64,000 bases of DNA from an uncultured Paracoccaceae bacterium (lineage in GTDB: Bacteria; Pseudomonadota; Alphaproteobacteria; Rhodobacterales; Rhodobacteraceae). The stretch's first letter is position 1. Every line of letters starts with the position of its first letter. Shown in pieces: positions 46,533 to 54,627 of this stretch. The notes below the pieces were generated by a model, which saw only the letters and a list, made by a program, of their open reading frames with translations, had not been told where the DNA came from and ran no database searches. Made by a program: the position numbers and the translations under genes. The DNA lies in assembly GCA_913041145.1 (NCBI GenBank), contig CAJWHE010000005.1, positions 1 to 64,000 of the forward strand, in the 5' to 3' direction.

Positions 46533-47252
46533 TTAATTCATCTCAGCCTTATGAGCCTCGACTAATTCCGCCATTGAGTTGAAAACCATGTCATAAGACG
46601 GCATTGGGCCAGGATTCATTGTTGCGCCAAACCCCTCTTGGTCATGCCTCCGGTAAATCCAACAATTTGAAAGCCCGCATTGATTGGCCGGTGCATGATC
46701 ATGAAACATGCTCTCAGCAGTGTGAAGGATCTCTGTTTTTGATACCCCAAGGCGTTCAAGGTTTTCAATCATGTAGTCAAAATTAACTTGGGAGGGTTTG
46801 TATGAACCAATATCTTCAGCAGTATAAACAGCATCAAAAACTACATTTAATTTCTTATTTGAATGTACAAAACTTGTGTTGTCGATATTTGAGAGAACAA
46901 CTAGTGCAAAATGTTGTTTTAGGTATTGAAGAGCTTCGATGCTGTCTTTGAAAGCAGGCCAGTCTTTAACTGAAGCTCCATAAGTCAAACAGTCACTCCA
47001 AGACACCACAACACCCCATTCTTCAGCTAGACGCTTATACACGACTGCAAGAGTATCGCTATATACCTTTGTGGGAGTATATAGTTGGGTTGTTGACTCG
47101 TAATGCGCATGAGCTTCAAGTATTTCATTCCGAGTAATTCTTCGGCTCATCTTGTCAGTTAGGGTTTTGAGTCCATTAACCATGCCTGTTTCCCAGTCAA
47201 TAAGAGTTCCATAAACATCAAATGTTAGCACTTTGAAGTCAGTTAATTTCAT
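46533..47252 (-). CDS. Haloacid dehalogenase type II (HAD superfamily)
   Basis: A 239-residue hydrolase. The nucleophile Asp12 lies in TFDVYGTLIDWE, motif II is in LVVLSNID, motif III in the SYKPSQVNFDYM region, and motif IV near MFHDHAPANQCGLSNCWIYR. Type II dehalogenases hydrolyse short 2-haloacids such as L-2-chloropropionate; many homologues have other small substrates. It is on the same strand as the methanethiol oxidase group but 390 bases downstream of DUF2182, so it is likely a separate unit. Confidence 0.88.
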   Translation of the reverse strand: MKLTDFKVLTFDVYGTLIDWETGMVNGLKTLTDKMSRRITRNEILEAHAHYESTTQLYTPTKVYSDTLAVVYKRLAEEWGVVVSWSDCLTYGASVKDWPAFKDSIEALQYLKQHFALVVLSNIDNTSFVHSNKKLNVVFDAVYTAEDIGSYKPSQVNFDYMIENLERLGVSKTEILHTAESMFHDHAPANQCGLSNCWIYRRHDQEGFGATMNPGPMPSYDMVFNSMAELVEAHKAEMN

Positions 47253-47642
47253 TTTTGTTCCTCTTTTTTAAATATGTTATTTACTAGAGCGCTTGCTTTT
47301 ACTGAGAGTGGAGATAGGGTGTTATACGATTTTTATTTCTTAAAATGAAAATAGCAAGCTTTGTAGGTCTTACCAAGTATTCGTACCTCTTATTTTACTT
47401 TAAAAATATTGTTGATTTTGCTTCCAAAGCCAAAGGTTTTATCGGCTCTAAACCCTAATTTTCGATCTAGAATAATATCTGCTGCTACGTATGTTGAAAA
47501 AGAAAAGGCTAATGTTAATGAAATAAATAATAAATTAACATTTAGTTTTTTAGATAGGTTGAAGATTGGATAACTTAAGTACACTTAATAATCCATTTTG
47601 TTAAAATTTGTTATTTTCAATTTTGTTTTGTCACATGTTTTC
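47253..47642. other. Intergenic region between HAD hydrolase and DUF2182 gene
   Basis: About 390 bases, AT-rich. The only possible gene is the small ORF listed separately at 47390-47584 on the minus strand. No terminator is evident after DUF2182. Confidence 0.35.
47390..47584 (-). CDS. Possible small exported protein
   Basis: A 64-residue ORF with a GTG start and no clear ribosome site. Residues about 13-34 resemble a signal peptide (hydrophobic, ending TYVAA-D), followed by DRKLGFRADKTFGFGSK. This looks protein-like, but I recognise no family and the start is weak. It may be a chance ORF in AT-rich DNA. Confidence 0.3.
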   Translation of the reverse strand: MYLSYPIFNLSKKLNVNLLFISLTLAFSFSTYVAADIILDRKLGFRADKTFGFGSKINNIFKVK

Positions 47643-48479
47643 TTAGGTAATACTATTTATAATAGGTATTAAAAATAAAAAACTTAAAATATAAAGTACA
47701 ATTGATGAAGCGATGGTCGCAGGGCCTTTATGTCCAGAGGTAGTTTCCGCAAGCATAACAATAAGTAAGAAGGCAGTTGCGAGAATATTCATTAACCCAA
47801 ACGCAAACATAGTCATCATCAAAGGGAAGCAACATTTTAAACTTGTTTTCCCAAAGCTGAACCCAGACCTAGCAATTTTAGTGCCACAACAAAGTTTTAA
47901 GTCCGTCTCACTTTTTAAATCTTTTAATTTTTTAAGATTTTTTACTTTGTGATTAGATAATTGATAGGTTGCGACTAGAGCGAGAAGGAGTGCAGCAATA
48001 AACTTGTTTGACAGAACCATATGTCCATCAAGCGTTCCAGTAGATCTGAGGGCCCATTGAAAGAAAACCATAACTATGCAAAAAATTAGCCATACCAAAA
48101 TAAACCCAAAGATAAATCTTAATGTATTTGTATTGTTTAAAGACCTTTTCTTTAAAACAGCGAAAATGCAGGGAAGCATCATAGCAAAAATCATAGCTAC
48201 CCACATACTGAAAGCTTTGAAAAAATCCCAAACTTTCCATAATAATTCTGTAGTAGTGCAAAAGTTTAAAGAGGATTCAAAGCTAAATGGATCATTAAAG
48301 AGAAGAAAGTTTATAAAAGAGAAAATCTCCATCCCTGGACCTGCATCCGCAAAATTACTCAATGAATTAATTGAAACAACTTGAACAATTGAGTATAGCC
48401 AACCTATGCTGATCAAAAAAAATATAAACAACAATGAAATATTATTGTCAGATTTTAATCTGTCAGTTCTTAACGTCAA
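47643..48479 (-). CDS. DUF2182 metal-binding-type membrane protein linked to methanethiol oxidase
   Basis: A 278-residue protein with about six membrane helices. DUF2182 features are visible: W93xxM96xxAMMLP103, a region with a conserved Cys pair LCCGT and the segment LKCCFPLMMTMFAFGLMN near the C terminus. DUF2182 proteins are predicted metal-binding integral membrane proteins of unknown function. The start is TTG inside the ferredoxin stop (TTGA, 48476-48479). It follows the methanethiol oxidase and ferredoxin genes on the same strand. Methanethiol oxidases of this family need copper, and in Hyphomicrobium the gene lies beside SCO1/SenC- and MauG-type genes; DUF2182 could do a similar job here, which is inference. 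Confidence 0.85.
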   Translation of the reverse strand: MTLRTDRLKSDNNISLLFIFFLISIGWLYSIVQVVSINSLSNFADAGPGMEIFSFINFLLFNDPFSFESSLNFCTTTELLWKVWDFFKAFSMWVAMIFAMMLPCIFAVLKKRSLNNTNTLRFIFGFILVWLIFCIVMVFFQWALRSTGTLDGHMVLSNKFIAALLLALVATYQLSNHKVKNLKKLKDLKSETDLKLCCGTKIARSGFSFGKTSLKCCFPLMMTMFAFGLMNILATAFLLIVMLAETTSGHKGPATIASSIVLYILSFLFLIPIINSIT

Positions 48480-48835
48480 CGTGCTTTACCCTTTTCGATT
48501 AATTCCTGAGCATTTGGCATAGAAAATGGATTAACATATAATTTATCGTGAGATTCCACTCCGACATCAAAGACACAATCTTCTTGGGGTCTGGCTACAC
48601 ATAATAACACGTACCCCTCTTTTGATTGACGTTTATTTAGAGCAGTGCCTTTTGGTTGTTTTACTCTGCCTGATATCATTTTAGCGGCACATGTTATACA
48701 ACCCCCGTAGCGACAGGCTATTGGTAGCACGTAGCCACCTTTTTCGACAGCATCTATTACAGGTGTGTCCTGTTCAACAAAGAAGACTTTATTTCCCCTG
48801 TTGCGAAAAACCACTTTGAAAACTTTTTTAGGCAT
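48476..48835 (-). CDS. Plant-type [2Fe-2S] ferredoxin linked to methanethiol oxidase
   Basis: A 119-residue ferredoxin. Cluster ligands are Cys41, Cys46, Cys49 (ACRYGGCITC) and Cys79 (VLLC). It has no signal peptide, so it is cytoplasmic, and a C-terminal extension of about 30 residues. It transfers single electrons; its partner is unknown. It begins 39 bases after the methanethiol oxidase gene, across a strong hairpin, and overlaps DUF2182 by four bases. It may accept or donate electrons in methanethiol oxidation or in maturation of the enzyme. I see no ribosome binding site. Confidence 0.9.
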   Translation of the reverse strand: MPKKVFKVVFRNRGNKVFFVEQDTPVIDAVEKGGYVLPIACRYGGCITCAAKMISGRVKQPKGTALNKRQSKEGYVLLCVARPQEDCVFDVGVESHDKLYVNPFSMPNAQELIEKGKAR

Positions 48836-48844
48836 ATTTAGAAT

Positions 48845-48871
48845 AGAAGGGGGGCATAAATCCCCCCTTCT
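48845..48871. promoter_or_regulatory. Strong hairpin between methanethiol oxidase and ferredoxin genes
   Basis: A perfect 10-base-pair stem, mostly G-C (48845-48854 with 48862-48871), with a 7-base loop. On the minus strand it begins just after the methanethiol oxidase stop and ends about 9 bases before the ferredoxin ATG. A T-run (48871-48875) occurs only in the + direction, so for the minus-strand genes it looks like an intercistronic stabiliser or partial terminator. Confidence 0.65.
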
Positions 48872-48873
48872 TT

Positions 48874-50241
48874 TTAAACCCAGATGTCAGATGAGCAGTC
48901 ACCGCCCGGATATCGAGTTTCATGCGCTCGAGCTGGCCCATTTGGCTCTTTACCAAAGTCTATCATAAAGTCTTCACGTATTTTCATGCCACCATTTTCA
49001 GGGTCACAATCAACGATAAGCATCATACCGCCATTCTCTTTCATGCCTGGATAAAATTGGTTATCCCATGTAGAGAAAAGTGATGTAGTTACAAATAGGC
49101 GTTTACCATCTAGTGAAAGTTGTATCATTTGTGGGGCGCCATCCACTGCTCGACCATTTACTTCGTCGGCTTTTCCGAGCATTCCCCCTAACCAAACTTG
49201 ACCAGTAAGTTTAGGATTTGAAGGATCTGATATATCATATTGACGAAGATCTCCGTGTAACCAATTTGAGAAATATAGATACTTATCATCCATAGAAACG
49301 AGAATATCAGTGATTAGTCCAGGCATTGGAACTGGTAAAATCCCATTATCAATTGATTCAACGTCTATTACTTTTTCAATTTGGAGCTCTCCAGCATCGT
49401 CTTTGTACCAATGAAAGATATTTGAGCTCAATGTTGCACCAACAAATCCATGGGTTGAGTCCGGGTTGTGGAGAAAGCGAGCCTCAAGGGGGATCATGCC
49501 TTCTTCACCTAAATCAATTGATTTTTCAATTGACTTGTTTTTGAAGTCCCAGAAATGAATATGTCTTCCATAATTTCCTTTTCCAACATCTTCTAAGTCA
49601 AAACCCGGCATAAACGTGTTCGGTGCTGCCCATTCCGTCGAAATCATCATATTGTGGCGGGGCTGATACCAAAAATCGTAGCTAAAATTCATGCCTGTGG
49701 TGTCAGTCTCCCAACGCCCCATAATCTCAAAATCCTTATTTAAATGTAAATAACCCCCTGGAGCATTACCATCTGCATCTCCAAGCATTGAAACTATAAT
49801 GTCTGCTCCCAGGCAGTGAACGGTATGTGGAGCTGAGAGATTAGTTTTAGCTTTTATTTCTTCTCCATCTACTGTCTTGTAAAGAGTGGGTGCTCGTGGG
49901 TCTGTAGCAGTATCTACTATATAAAAATTTGACGTCCTAACACCGGGTATAATTAAGTATTTACGTTCCATATCACCATCGCTATTGCATGATGAACATG
50001 CGTTCCATCCCATGTGATGGAGCTCATCGCCAGCACTTCCCATTTCTGTACGATGAATTACTTCTCCATAAGTCGAGCTCGTTTCATCGACATCTACAGT
50101 AGCTAGGTAATCGGGTTTTTCGATTCCTGTACCAGTGTAAATACAAATAGTGTAAACAACTTTCTCTCGTGGAGCTTTAATAGCATCCTGTGGCGATGCG
50201 TAACCGGGGCCCGCACAACAAACTTCATTTTCTGTAGACAT
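48874..50241 (-). CDS. mtoX: Methanethiol oxidase, SELENBP1/SBP56 family
   Basis: A 455-residue protein that matches the selenium-binding protein family along its full length. Conserved segments include ELHHMGWNACSSC (His75-His76 and Cys82, Cys85), the FWYQPRHNMMISTEW block, GFVGATLSSNIF, DKYLYFSNWLHGDLRQYDISD and the C-terminal RYPGGDCSSDIW. Human SELENBP1 and bacterial MtoX of this family oxidise methanethiol to formaldehyde, H2S and H2O2. There is no signal peptide (it starts MSTENEVCCAGPGY), so this version is cytoplasmic like the human protein. GGGAGAG lies before the ATG. Formaldehyde and sulfide-handling genes are divergently encoded next door, which strongly supports the assignment. 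Confidence 0.92.
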   Translation of the reverse strand: MSTENEVCCAGPGYASPQDAIKAPREKVVYTICIYTGTGIEKPDYLATVDVDETSSTYGEVIHRTEMGSAGDELHHMGWNACSSCNSDGDMERKYLIIPGVRTSNFYIVDTATDPRAPTLYKTVDGEEIKAKTNLSAPHTVHCLGADIIVSMLGDADGNAPGGYLHLNKDFEIMGRWETDTTGMNFSYDFWYQPRHNMMISTEWAAPNTFMPGFDLEDVGKGNYGRHIHFWDFKNKSIEKSIDLGEEGMIPLEARFLHNPDSTHGFVGATLSSNIFHWYKDDAGELQIEKVIDVESIDNGILPVPMPGLITDILVSMDDKYLYFSNWLHGDLRQYDISDPSNPKLTGQVWLGGMLGKADEVNGRAVDGAPQMIQLSLDGKRLFVTTSLFSTWDNQFYPGMKENGGMMLIVDCDPENGGMKIREDFMIDFGKEPNGPARAHETRYPGGDCSSDIWV

Positions 50242-50461
50242 TTTTCTCTCCCTATAAATACAGAACTAACTTTGACGTGTATTAATCTCAGTACAAACGA
50301 TTAAAATATAAAGTATAGATAAAATTATATTAATCCATGTTTAATTAAATAGAATGTATTTATAGTTTTGAGAATTATTTTGTGAACATCAGACTAGATT
50401 ATCTTGCCATTTATTAGAAGTGGTGTTTAAGTTTATCGATTATCAGTTTGGGAGATTAGTA
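50242..50461. promoter_or_regulatory. Divergent control region of the methanethiol/formaldehyde genes
   Basis: About 220 very AT-rich bases separate the methanethiol oxidase start (minus) from the formaldehyde dehydrogenase start (plus). Both promoters must lie here, allowing joint control of the two arms. No operator or promoter pattern is convincing. No regulator gene is adjacent. Confidence 0.5.
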
Positions 50462-51574
50462 ATGAGAACTCGTGCAGCGGTAGCTTTGGAAGCAGGTAAA
50501 CCTCTTGAAGTCATGGAGGTAAATCTTGAAGGGCCAAAGTATGGTGAGGTTTTAGTAGAAATAAAAGCTACTGGGATATGTCATACAGATGAATTTACTC
50601 TATCTGGCGCAGATCCAGAAGGTCTTTTTCCTGCAATACTCGGACATGAAGGAGCTGGTGTTGTTGTAGAGGTTGGCCCTGGGGTTAAATCCCTTGAGGT
50701 GGGTGATCACGTTATTCCCCTTTATACCGCGGAATGTCGTGAGTGCGAATATTGTCTAAATCCAAAGACAAATTTGTGCCAAGCAATTCGAACCACTCAA
50801 GGGCAAGGTGTTATGCCAGACGGAACCAGCAGGTTTACTATGTTGAATGGAACACCAATATTACACTATATGGGGTGTTCTACATTTTCCAATCATACAG
50901 TGCTACCAGAAATTGCGTTGGCTAAGGTTAGAAAAGACGCTCCATTTGATAAAATTTGTTATATTGGGTGCGGTGTTACTACAGGTATAGGAGCAGTTAT
51001 AAATACTGCAAAAGTAGAAATTGGTTCTACATCAATTGTTTTTGGACTTGGTGGAATTGGACTTAACGTGGTTCAAGGACTAAGACTTGCAGGTGCTGAT
51101 CAAATTGTTGGTGTTGATATAAACGATAGTAAAGTTGATATGGCTTCGCAGTTTGGTATGACTGATTTTGTTAACCCCTCAAAAGTTGATGGTGACCTAG
51201 TGGCACATCTTGTTGAATTAACTAATGGCGGTGGGGATTATACTTTTGATGCTACCGGTAACGTTAGCGTGATGCGTACTGCTTTAGAAAGTGCTCATAA
51301 AGGTTGGGGCGAAAGTGTTATAATCGGAGTTGCGCCAGCTGGAGCAGAAATTTCAACTAGACCTTTTCAGCTTGTTACGGGAAGGGTATGGCGTGGAACT
51401 GCCTTTGGTGGTGCTAGAGGAAGGACAGATGTCCCAAAAATTGTTGACTGGTATATGGATGGGAAAATTGAAATTGACCCTATGATTACGCATAAGCTAT
51501 CTCTTGATGATATCAATAAAGGTTTTGATCTAATGCATGAAGGAAAATCAATTCGTGCTGTGGTGGAGTATTAA
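50462..51574 (+). CDS. frmA: S-(hydroxymethyl)glutathione dehydrogenase (class III alcohol dehydrogenase)
   Basis: A 370-residue zinc- and NAD-dependent enzyme oxidising the glutathione-formaldehyde adduct to S-formylglutathione. Catalytic zinc ligands are Cys40 (GICHTDE) and His62 (GHEGAG); the structural zinc site is the [15 protein letters not shown] cluster; the nucleotide motif GLGGIGL follows. The ATG at 50462 is chosen since GGGAGA lies upstream and the family begins at MRTRAAVA; an earlier in-frame start at 50420 is unlikely. It is the first gene of a four-gene run on this strand with persulfide dioxygenase, formylglutathione hydrolase and SQR. Confidence 0.96.
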
Positions 51575-52450
51575 TTGGTGGAATCGTCTCTAGCAGAGAT
51601 TTACAGTTACTTTGATGAGAAAACGAATGCGGCTTGCTACATCGTAAAAGATCCAACCTCTACTTCGTGTGCTGTGATTGACTCAATACTTGACTTTGAT
51701 CTTTCAGCAGGAAAAATTACGACTGAACATGCAGATATGATAATAAGCGAAATACAATCTAAGGGATTGAATCTTGAGTGGATTATCGAAACCCATGTTC
51801 ACGCAGATCACTTATCAGCTGCCCCTTATCTCGCGAGTGAGTTAGGGGGAAAAATTGCCATTGGATCTAACATTGATGCCGTTCAGAAAGTGTTTGGAAA
51901 AATTTTTAATGCTGGCACAGAATTTCAAATGGATGGAAGTCAATTTGATCGGTTGTTCGAGGACGGTGACGAATTTCACATTGGTAATTTATCTGTACAG
52001 GTGATGCATACCCCGGGCCATACCCCCGCATGTGTTACATATGTAGTTGGAGACGCTGCCTTTATCGGTGACACATTGTTTATGCCCGATTTTGGGACTG
52101 CTAGAGCTGATTTTCCTGGAGGTTCTGCAACTGAGTTATATAATTCTATCTTGAAAATCTTATCTCTTCCTGAGGAAACACGTTTATTTCTTTGTCATGA
52201 CTATAAGGCACCTGGTAGAGACTGTTTTGCTTGGGAAACTACTGTGAAAGTTCAAAAAGAGAGCAACGTGCATATTGGTGGAAAAAAGACTAAGGAAGAG
52301 TTTATTGAGTTTAGAGTGAAACGAGATTCTCAGCTTTCCATGCCAAAGCTTATAATTCCATCTATTCAAACAAATATGCGAGCAGGTAATTTACCTGAAC
52401 CAGAGGACAATGGGACTCAATATTTAAAGATTCCAATAAATAAATTATAA
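51575..52450 (+). CDS. ETHE1/Blh-type persulfide dioxygenase (MBL fold)
   Basis: A 291-residue metallo-beta-lactamase-fold protein. Iron ligands and neighbours are visible: HVHADH (His74, His76, Asp78, His79), His149 in HTPGHTP, Asp166 in FIGDTLF, and His208 in LFLCHDY. It also has PDFGTARADFPGG. This fits the ETHE1/Blh persulfide dioxygenases, which oxidise glutathione persulfide to sulfite. The insert KVFGKIFNAGTEFQMDGSQFDRLFEDGD is typical of the bacterial Blh branch. It lies immediately after frmA (no gap), with a TTG start or GTG at 51578; it would consume persulfide made by the SQR. Confidence 0.9.
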   Translation: MVESSLAEIYSYFDEKTNAACYIVKDPTSTSCAVIDSILDFDLSAGKITTEHADMIISEIQSKGLNLEWIIETHVHADHLSAAPYLASELGGKIAIGSNIDAVQKVFGKIFNAGTEFQMDGSQFDRLFEDGDEFHIGNLSVQVMHTPGHTPACVTYVVGDAAFIGDTLFMPDFGTARADFPGGSATELYNSILKILSLPEETRLFLCHDYKAPGRDCFAWETTVKVQKESNVHIGGKKTKEEFIEFRVKRDSQLSMPKLIIPSIQTNMRAGNLPEPEDNGTQYLKIPINKL

Positions 52451-52475
52451 AATTAGTTTTTTGAGTGAGGTTTTA

Positions 52476-53300
52476 GTGGAAATTATTTCTGAAAATTTAT
52501 GTTTTGGTGGGATTCAGGGTGTGTATAAGCATGCGTCATCAGCTTGCAGTTGTGATATGACATTTGGTGTATTTCTTCCACCACAAGCTAAATTGGGTAA
52601 TGTTCCAGTAATTTGGTTTCTTTCAGGACTTACGTGTACTCATGAAAATGCCATGGTTAAAGCTGGAGCTCAGGGATGGGCAGCCAAGCACGGGGTAGCA
52701 ATAGTATTCCCAGATACTTCCCCAAGAGGAGACCAAGTTGCCGATGATGAAGCGTACGATTTGGGGCAGGGTGCCGGGTTCTATGTTGATGCAACTGAAA
52801 AACCGTGGTCACCAAATTACAATATGTGGACTTATATAAGTGAGGAATTACAGGGGTTAGTTATAAGTGAGTTTTCTGTAAATGATCAAAAACAAGGGAT
52901 TATGGGTCATTCAATGGGAGGGCACGGAGCGTTAACTCTGGCGTTTAGTTTGCCCAAATTGTTTAGATCAGTTTCAGCATTTTCTCCAATTTGTAATCCA
53001 ACAAAATCTGATTGGGGTAAGAAACAGTTTACTGCATATCTTGGATCTAATGAAGACCTTTGGCGGGCCCATGATGCAACTATTCTTATGGAAGAGAAGG
53101 GCTTTGATAACCGTGTTTTAATTGACCAGGGTAAGGCAGATAACTTTAATGATTTGCTTATGCTTAATTCAATGGAATCTGTGATTTCATCTCGAAAACA
53201 GGTTGCATCATTACGTGTTCATGATGGTTATGATCACAGTTACTTTTTTATTCAAAGCTTTATGGAAGATCATATTCGACACCATATTGAGTTGCTTTAA
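52476..53300 (+). CDS. fghA: S-formylglutathione hydrolase
   Basis: A 274-residue serine hydrolase releasing formate and glutathione. The catalytic triad is Ser146 (GHSMGG), an Asp near residue 222 (IDQGKADNF) and His254 (YDHSYFF). FGGIQGVYKHAS at the N terminus is diagnostic. The GTG at 52476 is chosen because GAGG lies five bases upstream and this gives the usual family start; the in-frame TTG at 52461 is unlikely. It follows the dioxygenase by 25 bases. Formate would need a formate dehydrogenase, which is not in the window. Confidence 0.95.
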   Translation: MEIISENLCFGGIQGVYKHASSACSCDMTFGVFLPPQAKLGNVPVIWFLSGLTCTHENAMVKAGAQGWAAKHGVAIVFPDTSPRGDQVADDEAYDLGQGAGFYVDATEKPWSPNYNMWTYISEELQGLVISEFSVNDQKQGIMGHSMGGHGALTLAFSLPKLFRSVSAFSPICNPTKSDWGKKQFTAYLGSNEDLWRAHDATILMEEKGFDNRVLIDQGKADNFNDLLMLNSMESVISSRKQVASLRVHDGYDHSYFFIQSFMEDHIRHHIELL

Positions 53301-53418
53301 TTGCTTAAAACCTAAATATAGGTTAAATTAATTATATCTATAAAGGTTTTTATTTTCGTTTGTAAAGAGTTCGCTAGAGGTAAAAGCTCGCAGGAGTGAA
53401 TTTTACGGGGGATACAAG

Positions 53419-54627
53419 ATGACCAAAATCCATGAAGTACTTATTGTTGGTGGAGGGGCCTCAGGGCTTGCAACAGCTTCTAGTTTAAGAAAAAGAAATC
53501 CACAGTTAGATATAACAGTTATAGAACCAGCAGAAAAACATTATTATCAGCCTGGTTGGACTATGGTTGGTGCAGGTGTTTTTAGTAAAGAACAAACCGA
53601 AAGAACAATGGACTCTGTTTGGCCAAGTGGGATTAAAAGAATAAAAAGTAAAGTTGTTACATTTGAACCTGATAATTCATTAGTGACGATAACCTCTGGT
53701 GAAAAAATTTCGTATAAAACTCTTGTGGTTGCAGCGGGACTTAAGCTGGACTGGGAAGCAGTTGAGGGTCTAGAAGAAAGCCTTGGGTCGAACGGTGTTA
53801 CCTCAAACTATCGTTACGACTTGGCACCATACACTTGGGAACTTGTTCAAAAGATGTCTGGAAAAAATGCAATCTTTACCCAGCCTCCAATGCCTATCAA
53901 ATGTGCAGGAGCTCCCCAAAAGGCTATGTATCTATCTTGTGATGAATGGTTACGAAAGGGTATTCTTAAAAATTTGAAGGTATCTTTTTGTAATGCAGGA
54001 CCTGTACTGTTTGGATGTGCGGCTTATGTTCCAGGTTTGATGGAGTACATTAATAAGTATTCAATCGATCTTGATTTTGGTCATAATTTAGTAAAGGTGG
54101 ATGGAAATGCTCAAAAGGCTTGGTTTAAGGTAGCAAAAGAGGGTTCAGAGCCTGAAGTAATCGAACGCAGTTTTGATATGTTGCATGTTTGCCCACCTCA
54201 GTGTGCGCCAGATTTTATTAAAAGTAGTCCATTGGCTAATGCCGGTGGTTGGGTGGACGTGGATCCAGCTACACTGCAGCACACAAAATTTAAAAATATA
54301 TTTAGTTTGGGTGATGTGTGTTCTACTTCTAACGCTAAAACTGTTGCTGCAGCACGCAAACAGGCTCCAATAGTTGCCCAAAATGTTATCTCTGTTCTTA
54401 ACGAGAGTACACCGAATATTCAATATGATGGATATGGGTCATGCCCTTTAACTGTTGAAAAGGGTAAAATTATTTTAGCAGAGTTTGGCTATGGTGGGAA
54501 ACTTATGCCTACTTTTAATTGGGATTCGACTAAACCACGTAGATTGGCTTGGTTCCTGAAAAAATCAATCTTACCAACTGTATATTGGAGCTTGATGCTT
54601 AAAGGCAGAGAATGGCTTGCGAAATAA
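53419..54627 (+). CDS. sqr: Type II sulfide:quinone oxidoreductase
   Basis: A 402-residue FAD enzyme. The nucleotide motif VGGGASG is at 10-16. Its redox cysteines match human SQOR: Cys162 in IKCAGAPQKAMYLS and Cys343 in DGYGSCPL. The long similar stretch to the end (ILAEFGY, YWSLMLKG) also matches the human enzyme. It oxidises H2S to a persulfide on a carrier such as glutathione, passing electrons to quinone at the inner membrane. It is separated from fghA by 118 bases and could have its own promoter. Its product feeds the dioxygenase. Confidence 0.94.
   Translation: MTKIHEVLIVGGGASGLATASSLRKRNPQLDITVIEPAEKHYYQPGWTMVGAGVFSKEQTERTMDSVWPSGIKRIKSKVVTFEPDNSLVTITSGEKISYKTLVVAAGLKLDWEAVEGLEESLGSNGVTSNYRYDLAPYTWELVQKMSGKNAIFTQPPMPIKCAGAPQKAMYLSCDEWLRKGILKNLKVSFCNAGPVLFGCAAYVPGLMEYINKYSIDLDFGHNLVKVDGNAQKAWFKVAKEGSEPEVIERSFDMLHVCPPQCAPDFIKSSPLANAGGWVDVDPATLQHTKFKNIFSLGDVCSTSNAKTVAAARKQAPIVAQNVISVLNESTPNIQYDGYGSCPLTVEKGKIILAEFGYGGKLMPTFNWDSTKPRRLAWFLKKSILPTVYWSLMLKGREWLAK

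What the first reader, a model, noticed from the sequence alone, without database searches (positions are those of the whole stretch)
46533..54627. Compact gene cluster that would fully process methanethiol, matching a human enzyme set
A SELENBP1-type methanethiol oxidase is divergent from class III formaldehyde dehydrogenase, ETHE1/Blh dioxygenase, formylglutathione hydrolase and human-like SQR (both redox cysteines conserved). Methanethiol oxidase yields formaldehyde and H2S; the neighbours convert these to formate and sulfite. Established knowledge: each family's reaction. Inference: the genes act as one pathway, perhaps fed by DMSP-derived methanethiol in seawater.
Basis: partly seen in the sequence, partly recalled or inferred. 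Interest (0 to 1): 0.85.

Follow-up and report, generated by a model that had tools for sequence, protein, structure and literature searches.

The report
Methanethiol oxidase with its own ferredoxin
A marine bacterium carries a close bacterial relative of a human enzyme that breaks down the foul-smelling gas methanethiol, next to genes that would dispose of both toxic products, and this enzyme class is tied to one particular electron-carrying protein whose part in the reaction is still untested as far as I could find.

Summary
A SELENBP1-class methanethiol oxidase (MTO, 48874-50241 -) is divergent from class III formaldehyde dehydrogenase, a persulfide dioxygenase (PDO, bacterial rather than ETHE1 type), formylglutathione hydrolase and human-type SQR. 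The exact five-gene set is lineage-specific: complete in the window and one near-identical locus, cut by a contig end in a third. Subsets recur in other marine lineages (17 of 52 loci of the window's MTO clade; 0 of 26 loci of other SBP56 clades), which supports one pathway. The genome also has DmdA and formate dehydrogenase. MTO-PDO-SQR clusters are already published for MtoX-type MTO in Methylophaga.

The ferredoxin follows SELENBP1-class MTO in 82 of 90 loci with room. In sampled whole genomes the two match one for one (12 and 12 in 149; 6 and 6 in 398), with a score gap from 174 to 68 bits. My searches found no paper on this link. Best reading: the ferredoxin is the MTO's dedicated redox partner, perhaps why published products disagree (H2S + H2O2, or sulfane sulfur without H2O2). 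Electron direction is untested. Six small, possibly incomplete assemblies carry this MTO without it.

The parts
48874..50241 (-). SELENBP1-class (SBP56 clade A) methanethiol oxidase, 455 aa; no signal peptide visible at the N-terminus (read by eye, no predictor run)
   Evidence: Pfam SBP56 710 bits; MtoX equivalog only 156 bits against a cut-off of 650; copper/active-site residues H75 H76 H139 H142 D189 E253 H440 conserved; H329 in 93 of 93 clade A rows and in none of the 28 rows of other clades
48476..48835 (-). Plant-type [2Fe-2S] ferredoxin of a subfamily tied to SELENBP1-class MTO; 38 bp after the MTO gene
   Evidence: Pfam Fer2 49 bits; C41 C46 C49 in 81 of 81 rows and C79 in 79 of 79, plus C-terminal GVESHDxLYxNPF signature; one-to-one with clade A MTO in sampled genomes (with 63, 22 with 64)
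47643..48479 (-). PpoB2 (DUF2182) membrane copper chaperone; overlaps the ferredoxin gene by 4 bp
   Evidence: Pfam PF09948 90.6 bits, cut-off 28.7; about six hydrophobic segments and conserved Met/Cys motifs among 15 sequences, window included; function of the founding member PpoB2 from PMC2855505
50462..51574 (+). Class III (glutathione-dependent) formaldehyde dehydrogenase, 370 aa from ATG 50462
   Evidence: TIGR02818 607.7 bits, cut-off 543.95; start chosen and the 370-aa ORF of L072
51575..52450 (+). Glutathione persulfide dioxygenase, bacterial (Blh-domain / 4ysk-like) type rather than ETHE1 type; HVHADH motif starting at residue 74
52461..53300 (+). S-formylglutathione hydrolase
   Evidence: TIGR02821 414 bits, cut-off 281.7
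53419..54627 (+). Sulfide:quinone oxidoreductase of the human (SQOR) type; redox cysteines C162 and C342
   Evidence: human SQOR chains 326 bits, E 2e-96; cysteine positions
50242..50461 (.). Divergent intergenic region (220 bp) between the MTO and FDH genes, presumed to hold both promoters
   Evidence: coordinates; sequence read; no promoter tested

Best explanation
This is a methanethiol catabolism module of a marine Rhodobacteraceae-like bacterium, built around a SELENBP1-class, copper-dependent MTO that is probably cytosolic and works with a dedicated [2Fe-2S] ferredoxin. Proposed steps: PpoB2 helps load copper into MTO. MTO, exchanging electrons with the ferredoxin (most likely receiving them), cleaves methanethiol to formaldehyde and a sulfide-level sulfur; with electrons supplied, CH3SH + O2 + 2e- + 2H+ gives HCHO + H2S + H2O and no H2O2. 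Formaldehyde is removed as glutathione adducts by FDH and FGH to formate. Sulfide is removed by SQR (to quinone, sulfur passed to glutathione) and PDO (to sulfite). The likely source of methanethiol is DMSP demethylation by DmdA elsewhere in the genome. Shown here: gene identities, conserved pairing of MTO with the ferredoxin, recurrence of the neighbours, DmdA and formate dehydrogenase in the genome. Inferred: substrate, copper loading, the ferredoxin's role and the direction of its electrons.
For: Gene identities. Ferredoxin downstream of clade A MTO in 82 of 90 loci with room, 0 of 26 loci of other SBP56 clades, 0 of 2 MtoX loci. Whole genomes: 12 clade A MTOs and 12 ferredoxins of this subfamily in 149 genomes, at the same places, next ferredoxin-like hit 56.6 bits against 174 or more; 6 and 6 in 398 genomes, next 67.9 bits (the two samples overlap, and one search scored at most 11 first-look candidates a genome). 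The second MTO of this genome also carries its own ferredoxin. MTO and ferredoxin distances correlate (Mantel r 0.80, n = 81, best of 999 shuffles 0.20). SQR 12 of 36, FDH 13 of 37, PDO 9 of 36, FGH 6 of 37 loci with room in the window's clade, 0 of 26 in other clades, spread over different branches. DmdA in the genome and just downstream of MTO and ferredoxin, one small ORF between, in a Granulosicoccaceae MAG, L140. IclR-family genes upstream of MTO in 24 of 120 loci, including an MtoX locus; in R. pomeroyi, where an IclR gene lies directly upstream of mtoX, mtoX transcription rises about 14-fold with methanethiol (PMC5739008, passages).
Against: Eight of 90 loci with room lack the ferredoxin downstream; two of those genomes have a strong homologue elsewhere (110 and 121 bits), six do not (small assemblies of unknown completeness), so it can apparently be lost or replaced. 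No ferredoxin reductase is among the window's neighbouring genes; I did not search the other loci for one. Recombinant RdMTO, a Rhodobacteraceae MTO whose cysteine numbering fits this clade, acts on methanethiol in vitro, and that paper's text never mentions ferredoxin, NADPH or an electron donor (PMC10936201), so the partner is not strictly needed. The same paper found sulfane sulfur rather than H2S, and only a mild effect of losing SQR and FccAB in R. pomeroyi (an MtoX-type enzyme). PpoB2 is present in only 17 of 46 loci of the clade with room. No DmsC-type sulfite oxidation gene was found.
Confidence: 0.62

Rival explanations
1. The ferredoxin serves maturation, not turnover: it reduces Cu(II) or a protein-derived cofactor during assembly, doing for cytosolic MTO what SCO1/SenC and MauG do for periplasmic MtoX.
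For: In MtoX operons the conserved partners are SCO1/SenC and MauG, thought to mature the enzyme (PMC5739008, passages). In the window the ferredoxin gene overlaps that of a PpoB2 copper chaperone. The ferredoxin-less small genomes could mature MTO by other means.
Against: PpoB2 is patchy (17 of 46 loci in the clade, 0 of 32 in the sister clade A2) while the ferredoxin is nearly constant (43 of 50 and 32 of 32), so ferredoxin and copper chaperone do not travel as one unit. Recombinant human SELENBP1 made in E. coli already holds copper and is active (PMC10362175, passages).
Confidence: 0.2
2. MTO makes sulfane sulfur directly (CH3SH + O2 gives HCHO + S0 + H2O), so PDO is the on-path sulfur enzyme and SQR handles sulfide from other sources; the ferredoxin could be a reductant that releases bound sulfane sulfur from the enzyme.
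For: Measured for three Rhodobacteraceae MTOs, including RdMTO whose cysteines C82, C143, C448 match this clade's numbering (window C82, C143, C449) (PMC10936201). PDO without SQR occurs beside the clade A2 MTOs L033, L135 and L141.
Against: In the window's clade SQR is at least as frequent a neighbour as PDO (12 of 36 against 9 of 36), and L074 and L076 (SAR116 MAGs) and their relative L079 have SQR without PDO on the stretch held (L079 and L076 are short contigs).
Confidence: 0.25
3. The MTO accepts electrons from methanethiol and passes them to the ferredoxin (dehydrogenase-like, energy-conserving), rather than the ferredoxin feeding the MTO.
For: The same gene pairing would be expected.
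Against: Hyphomicrobium MTO was shown to consume O2 (PMC5739008, passages) and H2O2 is reported from human SELENBP1 (PMC10362175); low-potential ferredoxin reduction by a thiol is unfavourable (general knowledge).
Confidence: 0.1
4. The cluster is a general formaldehyde and sulfide detoxification island and the SBP56 protein has another substrate or a selenium or thiol stress role.
For: FDH, FGH, PDO and SQR are general enzymes; SELENBP1 accepts other thiols (PMC10362175, passages).
Against: An MTO-type reaction would yield both products in one step; IclR genes recur upstream; DmdA is just downstream in L140.
Confidence: 0.12

Closest known systems
mtoX gene clusters of Methylophaga thiooxydans (PMC6548844)
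   Same: MTO clustered with persulfide dioxygenase and sulfide:quinone oxidoreductase; same proposed sulfur route
   Different: MTO there comes with SCO1/MauG and TlpA-like partners and SqrB; 'ferredoxin' does not occur in the text (PpoB2 not looked for), and formaldehyde goes through other pathways (fghA not detected in the six Methylophaga species compared)
MtoX / SCO1-SenC / MauG operon of Hyphomicrobium and Ruegeria pomeroyi (PMC5739008)
   Same: SBP56 superfamily, copper-dependent MTO, maturation genes next door, IclR regulator upstream in R. pomeroyi
   Different: Periplasmic, with signal peptide; different clade (window MTO scores 156 bits against the MtoX model's cut-off of 650); ferredoxin and PpoB2 instead of SCO1 and MauG
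Human SELENBP1 (PMC10362175)
   Same: Same SBP56 class: copper-site residues, CSSC and H329 (site of a tested human change) present in the window protein; cytosolic
   Different: No ferredoxin partner mentioned ('ferredoxin' does not occur in that paper); reported products H2S, H2O2 and formaldehyde
RdMTO and RlMTO, cluster 1 Rhodobacteraceae MTOs (PMC10936201)
   Same: Three conserved cysteines GWNACS, HTVHC, GGDC; RdMTO numbering fits clade A
   Different: Studied as single proteins; 'ferredoxin', 'operon' and 'gene cluster' do not occur in the text
PpoB1-PpoB2 tyrosinase operon of Marinomonas mediterranea (PMC2855505)
   Same: A PpoB2-family membrane protein encoded with a copper enzyme
   Different: Client is a tyrosinase, not an MTO; no ferredoxin mentioned in the passages seen

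Membership tests
SELENBP1-class SBP56 methanethiol oxidase | SBP56 fold family over full length | tested here: met
   PF05694 710 bits, residues 8-455
SELENBP1-class SBP56 methanethiol oxidase | Copper and active-site residues named for human SELENBP1 (H73, H74, H137, H140, D189, E252) and H329 | tested here: met
   Equivalent window residues H75 H76 H139 H142 D189 E253 H329 conserved in clade A; list from PMC10362175; pairing with human numbering rests on my recall of the human sequence
SELENBP1-class SBP56 methanethiol oxidase | Methanethiol oxidase activity | not testable with these tools
   No assay; RdMTO of probably the same clade was active (PMC10936201)
MtoX (periplasmic, SCO1/MauG-linked) | Match to the MtoX equivalog model | tested here: not met
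   156 bits, cut-off 650
MtoX (periplasmic, SCO1/MauG-linked) | SCO1/SenC and MauG neighbours | tested here: not met
   Neighbours are ferredoxin, PpoB2 and HAD on one side, FDH, PDO, FGH, SQR on the other
ETHE1 (type I persulfide dioxygenase) | Closest to human ETHE1 among solved structures | tested here: not met
   4chl 76 bits against 332-356 bits for 4ysk, 4efz and 9g8t
Human-type (SQOR) sulfide:quinone oxidoreductase | Closest to human SQOR, with two redox cysteines | tested here: met
   326 bits to 6oi5; next other chain 88 bits; C162, C342
Class III formaldehyde dehydrogenase | Equivalog model above cut-off | tested here: met
   607.7 bits, cut-off 543.95
S-formylglutathione hydrolase | Equivalog model above cut-off | tested here: met
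   414 bits, cut-off 281.7
PpoB2 copper chaperone | PF09948 above gathering score; membrane protein | tested here: met
   90.6 bits, cut-off 28.7; hydrophobic segments
PpoB2 copper chaperone | Copper transfer to the partner oxidase | not testable with these tools
   no assay
Plant-type [2Fe-2S] ferredoxin | Fer2 domain with four cluster cysteines | tested here: met
   PF00111 49 bits; C41 C46 C49 C79 invariant; below the subfamily cut-off of TIGR02008 (65.9 against 81.15)

The most novel reading that the evidence does not exclude
SELENBP1-class methanethiol oxidases are ferredoxin-dependent copper oxygenases: in the cell a dedicated [2Fe-2S] ferredoxin supplies two electrons, so methanethiol is cleaved to formaldehyde, H2S and water, and the H2O2 or sulfane sulfur seen with isolated enzymes reflects the missing electron partner. 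If so, human and plant SELENBP1 should also have an electron donor still to be found.
Probability: 0.3. Interest if true: 0.85.

Novelty: new variant of a known kind. Interest (0 to 1): 0.62.

Why it matters
Methanethiol is a main product of DMSP breakdown in the sea, and SELENBP1 is its human oxidase. Published products of these enzymes disagree: H2S with H2O2, or sulfane sulfur without H2O2. A near-exclusive pairing of this enzyme class with one ferredoxin subfamily offers a simple cause that can be tested: the assays may have lacked the electron partner. It also gives a marker (the MTO-ferredoxin pair) for annotating methanethiol oxidation in SAR116, Planktomarina and other marine bacteria, and a candidate copper-loading protein for a cytosolic copper enzyme.

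Tried and rejected
Rejected: that the conserved alpha/beta hydrolase beside MTO in SAR116 and Planktomarina loci replaces formylglutathione hydrolase. All 12 of 12 genomes tested have a true FGH above cut-off (nine of the ten hydrolase loci, plus L072, L075 and the window's genome; L111, the tenth, was not put in, but its record has the same name stem, CAJWTH01, as L078's).

Rejected: that PDO is the human ETHE1 type. Rejected: that MTO is an MtoX-model member.

Weak or led nowhere: the ferredoxin-less MTO lineage shows few shared changes at otherwise conserved positions (V101, R102, N208 and T391 in 5 of 7 rows), too few to claim a lost docking site; one of the seven, L106, is cut by its contig end, so its lack of ferredoxin is assumed from kinship. 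Ferredoxin charge does not separate it clearly (median pI 7.0, range 4.3-11.2, n = 78). No DmsC-type sulfite dehydrogenase anchor in the genome. No IclR match in the window. No structure was predicted: only single chains are offered and the question is about a complex.

Loci cut just after MTO (L105, L106, L147) were dropped from the ferredoxin count. The tree is a quick LG+G4 one, warns of long branches meeting at the outgroup, and its counts of change cannot tell gain from loss. SBP56 clades A, B and C are my labels from bit scores and the tree. Neighbours were called by phmmer with window proteins and score thresholds that I set. A SCO1, MauG or copper-exporter search of the whole genome was not made. 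The literature searches cover one open-access library only.

Mended on checking: second SQR cysteine is C342, not C341; repeated gains of neighbours are no longer claimed as shown; one small ORF lies between ferredoxin and DmdA in L140.
Full report
Observation. The window holds the five named genes as intact ORFs. On the minus strand lie MTO (48874-50241), a ferredoxin (48476-48835) and PpoB2 (47643-48479). On the plus strand lie FDH (ATG at 50462), PDO, FGH and SQR up to 54627. Family assignments come from Pfam and NCBIfam and from solved structures. SQR is of the human type (326 bits, both cysteines). The dioxygenase is not of the human ETHE1 type.

Where it is. The window is part of a 2.42 Mb assembly; every genome listed in the sample of its order belongs to its own family (63 without a match were not listed). 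The nearest named loci are Rhodobacteraceae MAGs (99 and 98 percent identical MTO). The genome has a second MTO with its own ferredoxin and a CoA-binding protein.

Which MTO. SBP56 proteins in sampled Proteobacteria fall into score classes: about 676-710 bits (clade A, the window's), 646-665 (C), 549-604 (B) and 127-150 (MtoX-like), leaving aside a few fragments and weak hits. Clade A has CSSC and, at window H329, histidine in 93 of 93 rows; the 20 B, 6 C and 2 MtoX rows have other residues there. In human SELENBP1, H329Y and changes at H73, H74, H137, H140, D189 and E252 each cost about 90 percent or more of the activity (PMC10362175, passages including its Table 1). I paired human and window numbers from recall of the human sequence. 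The window protein misses the MtoX model's cut-off by far. It is therefore a SELENBP1-class enzyme.

The ferredoxin. Among 90 clade A loci with room downstream, 82 have this ferredoxin next to MTO: 43 of 50 in the window's clade (A1), 32 of 32 in A2 and 7 of 8 in the basal group; 0 of 26 B/C and 0 of 2 MtoX loci do. The reverse test is stronger. In 149 genomes of the order, 12 clade A MTOs and 12 ferredoxins scoring 174 bits or more lie at the same 12 places, and the next ferredoxin-like hit has 56.6 bits. In 398 genomes of the phylum it is 6 and 6, then 67.9 bits. These samples share some genomes, and one search scored at most 11 first-look candidates a genome. The ferredoxin has the four cluster cysteines and a conserved C-terminal signature, GVESHDxLYxNPF. 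MTO and ferredoxin distances correlate (Mantel r 0.80, n = 81), as expected of genes inherited together. Exceptions: eight loci with room lack it; two of those genomes have a strong homologue elsewhere and six do not. The six, with the contig-cut L106, form one group beside the window's own branch, so the partner can apparently be lost; these are small assemblies (0.9-2.0 Mb) whose completeness I do not know.

PpoB2. Seventeen of 46 A1 loci with room have PpoB2 after the ferredoxin, none of 32 A2 loci, and 1 of 25 B/C loci has a weak one nearby. The founding PpoB2 transfers copper to a tyrosinase (PMC2855505, passages). Homologues here share Met- and Cys-containing motifs. Copper loading of MTO is inferred.

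The neighbours. Within 6 kb in A1: SQR 12 of 36, FDH 13 of 37, PDO 9 of 36, FGH 6 of 37 loci with room; in total 17 of 52 loci have at least one. In A2 it is 0 of 29, 1 of 29, 3 of 29 and 0 of 29. The five-gene set is complete only in the window and L072; L073 is cut by its contig end before SQR. Minimum numbers of changes on the MTO tree are 4 (SQR), 4 (FDH), 7 (PDO) and 2 (FGH). These counts cannot tell gain from loss; repeated joining is my inference, from different subsets and orders in different branches, for example FDH and FGH alone in L119-L121. Four enzymes that act on formaldehyde, sulfide and their glutathione adducts beside one enzyme that would make both is the main argument for one pathway.

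Source and fate. The genome holds DmdA (521.9 bits, cut-off 410) and a formate dehydrogenase alpha subunit (752 bits). A DmsC-type anchor of sulfite dehydrogenase was not found, so the fate of sulfite is open. In L140 DmdA lies just downstream of MTO and ferredoxin, with one small ORF between. Other DmdA-like hits, near A2 loci (L032, L040, L043, L126, L135; 289-310 bits) and a clade B locus (L068; 436 bits), were not tested against the DmdA model. IclR genes lie upstream of MTO in 24 of 120 loci, one of them an MtoX locus; in R. pomeroyi, with an IclR gene directly upstream, mtoX responds to methanethiol (PMC5739008, passages).

Mechanism. Reported products differ: H2S, H2O2 and formaldehyde (PMC5739008 and PMC10362175, passages), or sulfane sulfur without H2O2 (PMC10936201, abstract, part 2 of Results and passages). 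A ferredoxin that supplies electrons would turn the reaction into CH3SH + O2 + 2e- + 2H+ to HCHO + H2S + H2O. This is inference; maturation or the reverse electron flow would leave the same gene pattern.

Literature. Searches for the MTO-ferredoxin link: 'methanethiol oxidase' + ferredoxin + 'selenium-binding protein' (4 papers), 'selenium-binding protein' + '2Fe-2S ferredoxin' + operon (0), methanethiol + ferredoxin + MtoX (1), SELENBP1 + ferredoxin (13, 10 listed). In four of these hits I looked at the passages and 'ferredoxin' stands in other matters (PMC10433728, PMC11918410, PMC11142342, PMC10974252); the rest I know from the listing only. 'Ferredoxin' does not occur in PMC10277263 (SBP evolution), PMC13360808, PMC6548844, PMC10936201 or PMC10362175. 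MTO with PDO and SQR in one cluster is known from Methylophaga (PMC6548844, passages). SAR116 was already predicted to couple DMSP demethylation, MTO and sulfide oxidation (PMC12262181, passages).

Verdict. Methanethiol catabolism by a linked cluster is a known idea, extended here to the SELENBP1 class and to the formaldehyde branch. The dedicated ferredoxin and the PpoB2 gene are, as far as my searches go, undescribed.

Noticed in passing
L002:1471-3664 (same genome, contig C9): A second SELENBP1-class MTO (about 70 percent identical) followed by its own ferredoxin and a CoA-binding-domain protein; this trio is fixed in clade A2 (32 of 32 loci with room).
   Followed up: partly
L074, L076, L078, L079, L080, L081, L085, L109, L111, L116: A conserved alpha/beta hydrolase lies close to the MTO in 10 of 80 loci; in L109 it follows the ferredoxin in the same direction. 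It is not a substitute for a missing FGH. Function unknown.
   Followed up: partly
L044, L052, L053, L056-L058, L061, L063, L065, L066 and four more of clades B/C: SBP56 of clades B/C is followed by a multi-pass membrane protein with a G(L/V)(Y/F)HGxNPxMGW motif in 14 of 26 loci (nine loci inspected); one representative had no Pfam match (L057). Perhaps that class's own maturation or copper protein.
   Followed up: partly
L077, L103, L106, L108, L113, L117, L132: One group of small marine genomes carries SELENBP1-class MTO without the ferredoxin beside it, and in the six searched without it in the assembly (L106 is cut by its contig end and its genome was not searched): a natural test of what the ferredoxin does.
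   Followed up: partly
L140:12540-13667; also L032, L040, L043, L126, L135, L068: DmdA (L140, above the model's cut-off) or DmdA-like genes lie near clade A2 MTOs and one clade B MTO.
   Followed up: partly
L033, L135, L141, L143, L144: A rhodanese-domain gene follows the MTO-ferredoxin-CoA-binding trio; in L033, L135 and L141 a persulfide dioxygenase is near too.
   Followed up: no
L038: One genome region holds a clade B MTO, a class III FDH and a clade A2 MTO with its ferredoxin within about 7 kb.
   Followed up: no
window 46533-47252: Type II HAD (2-haloacid dehalogenase-like, 146.9 bits, cut-off 125.4) downstream of PpoB2; no evidence that it belongs to the module.
   Followed up: no
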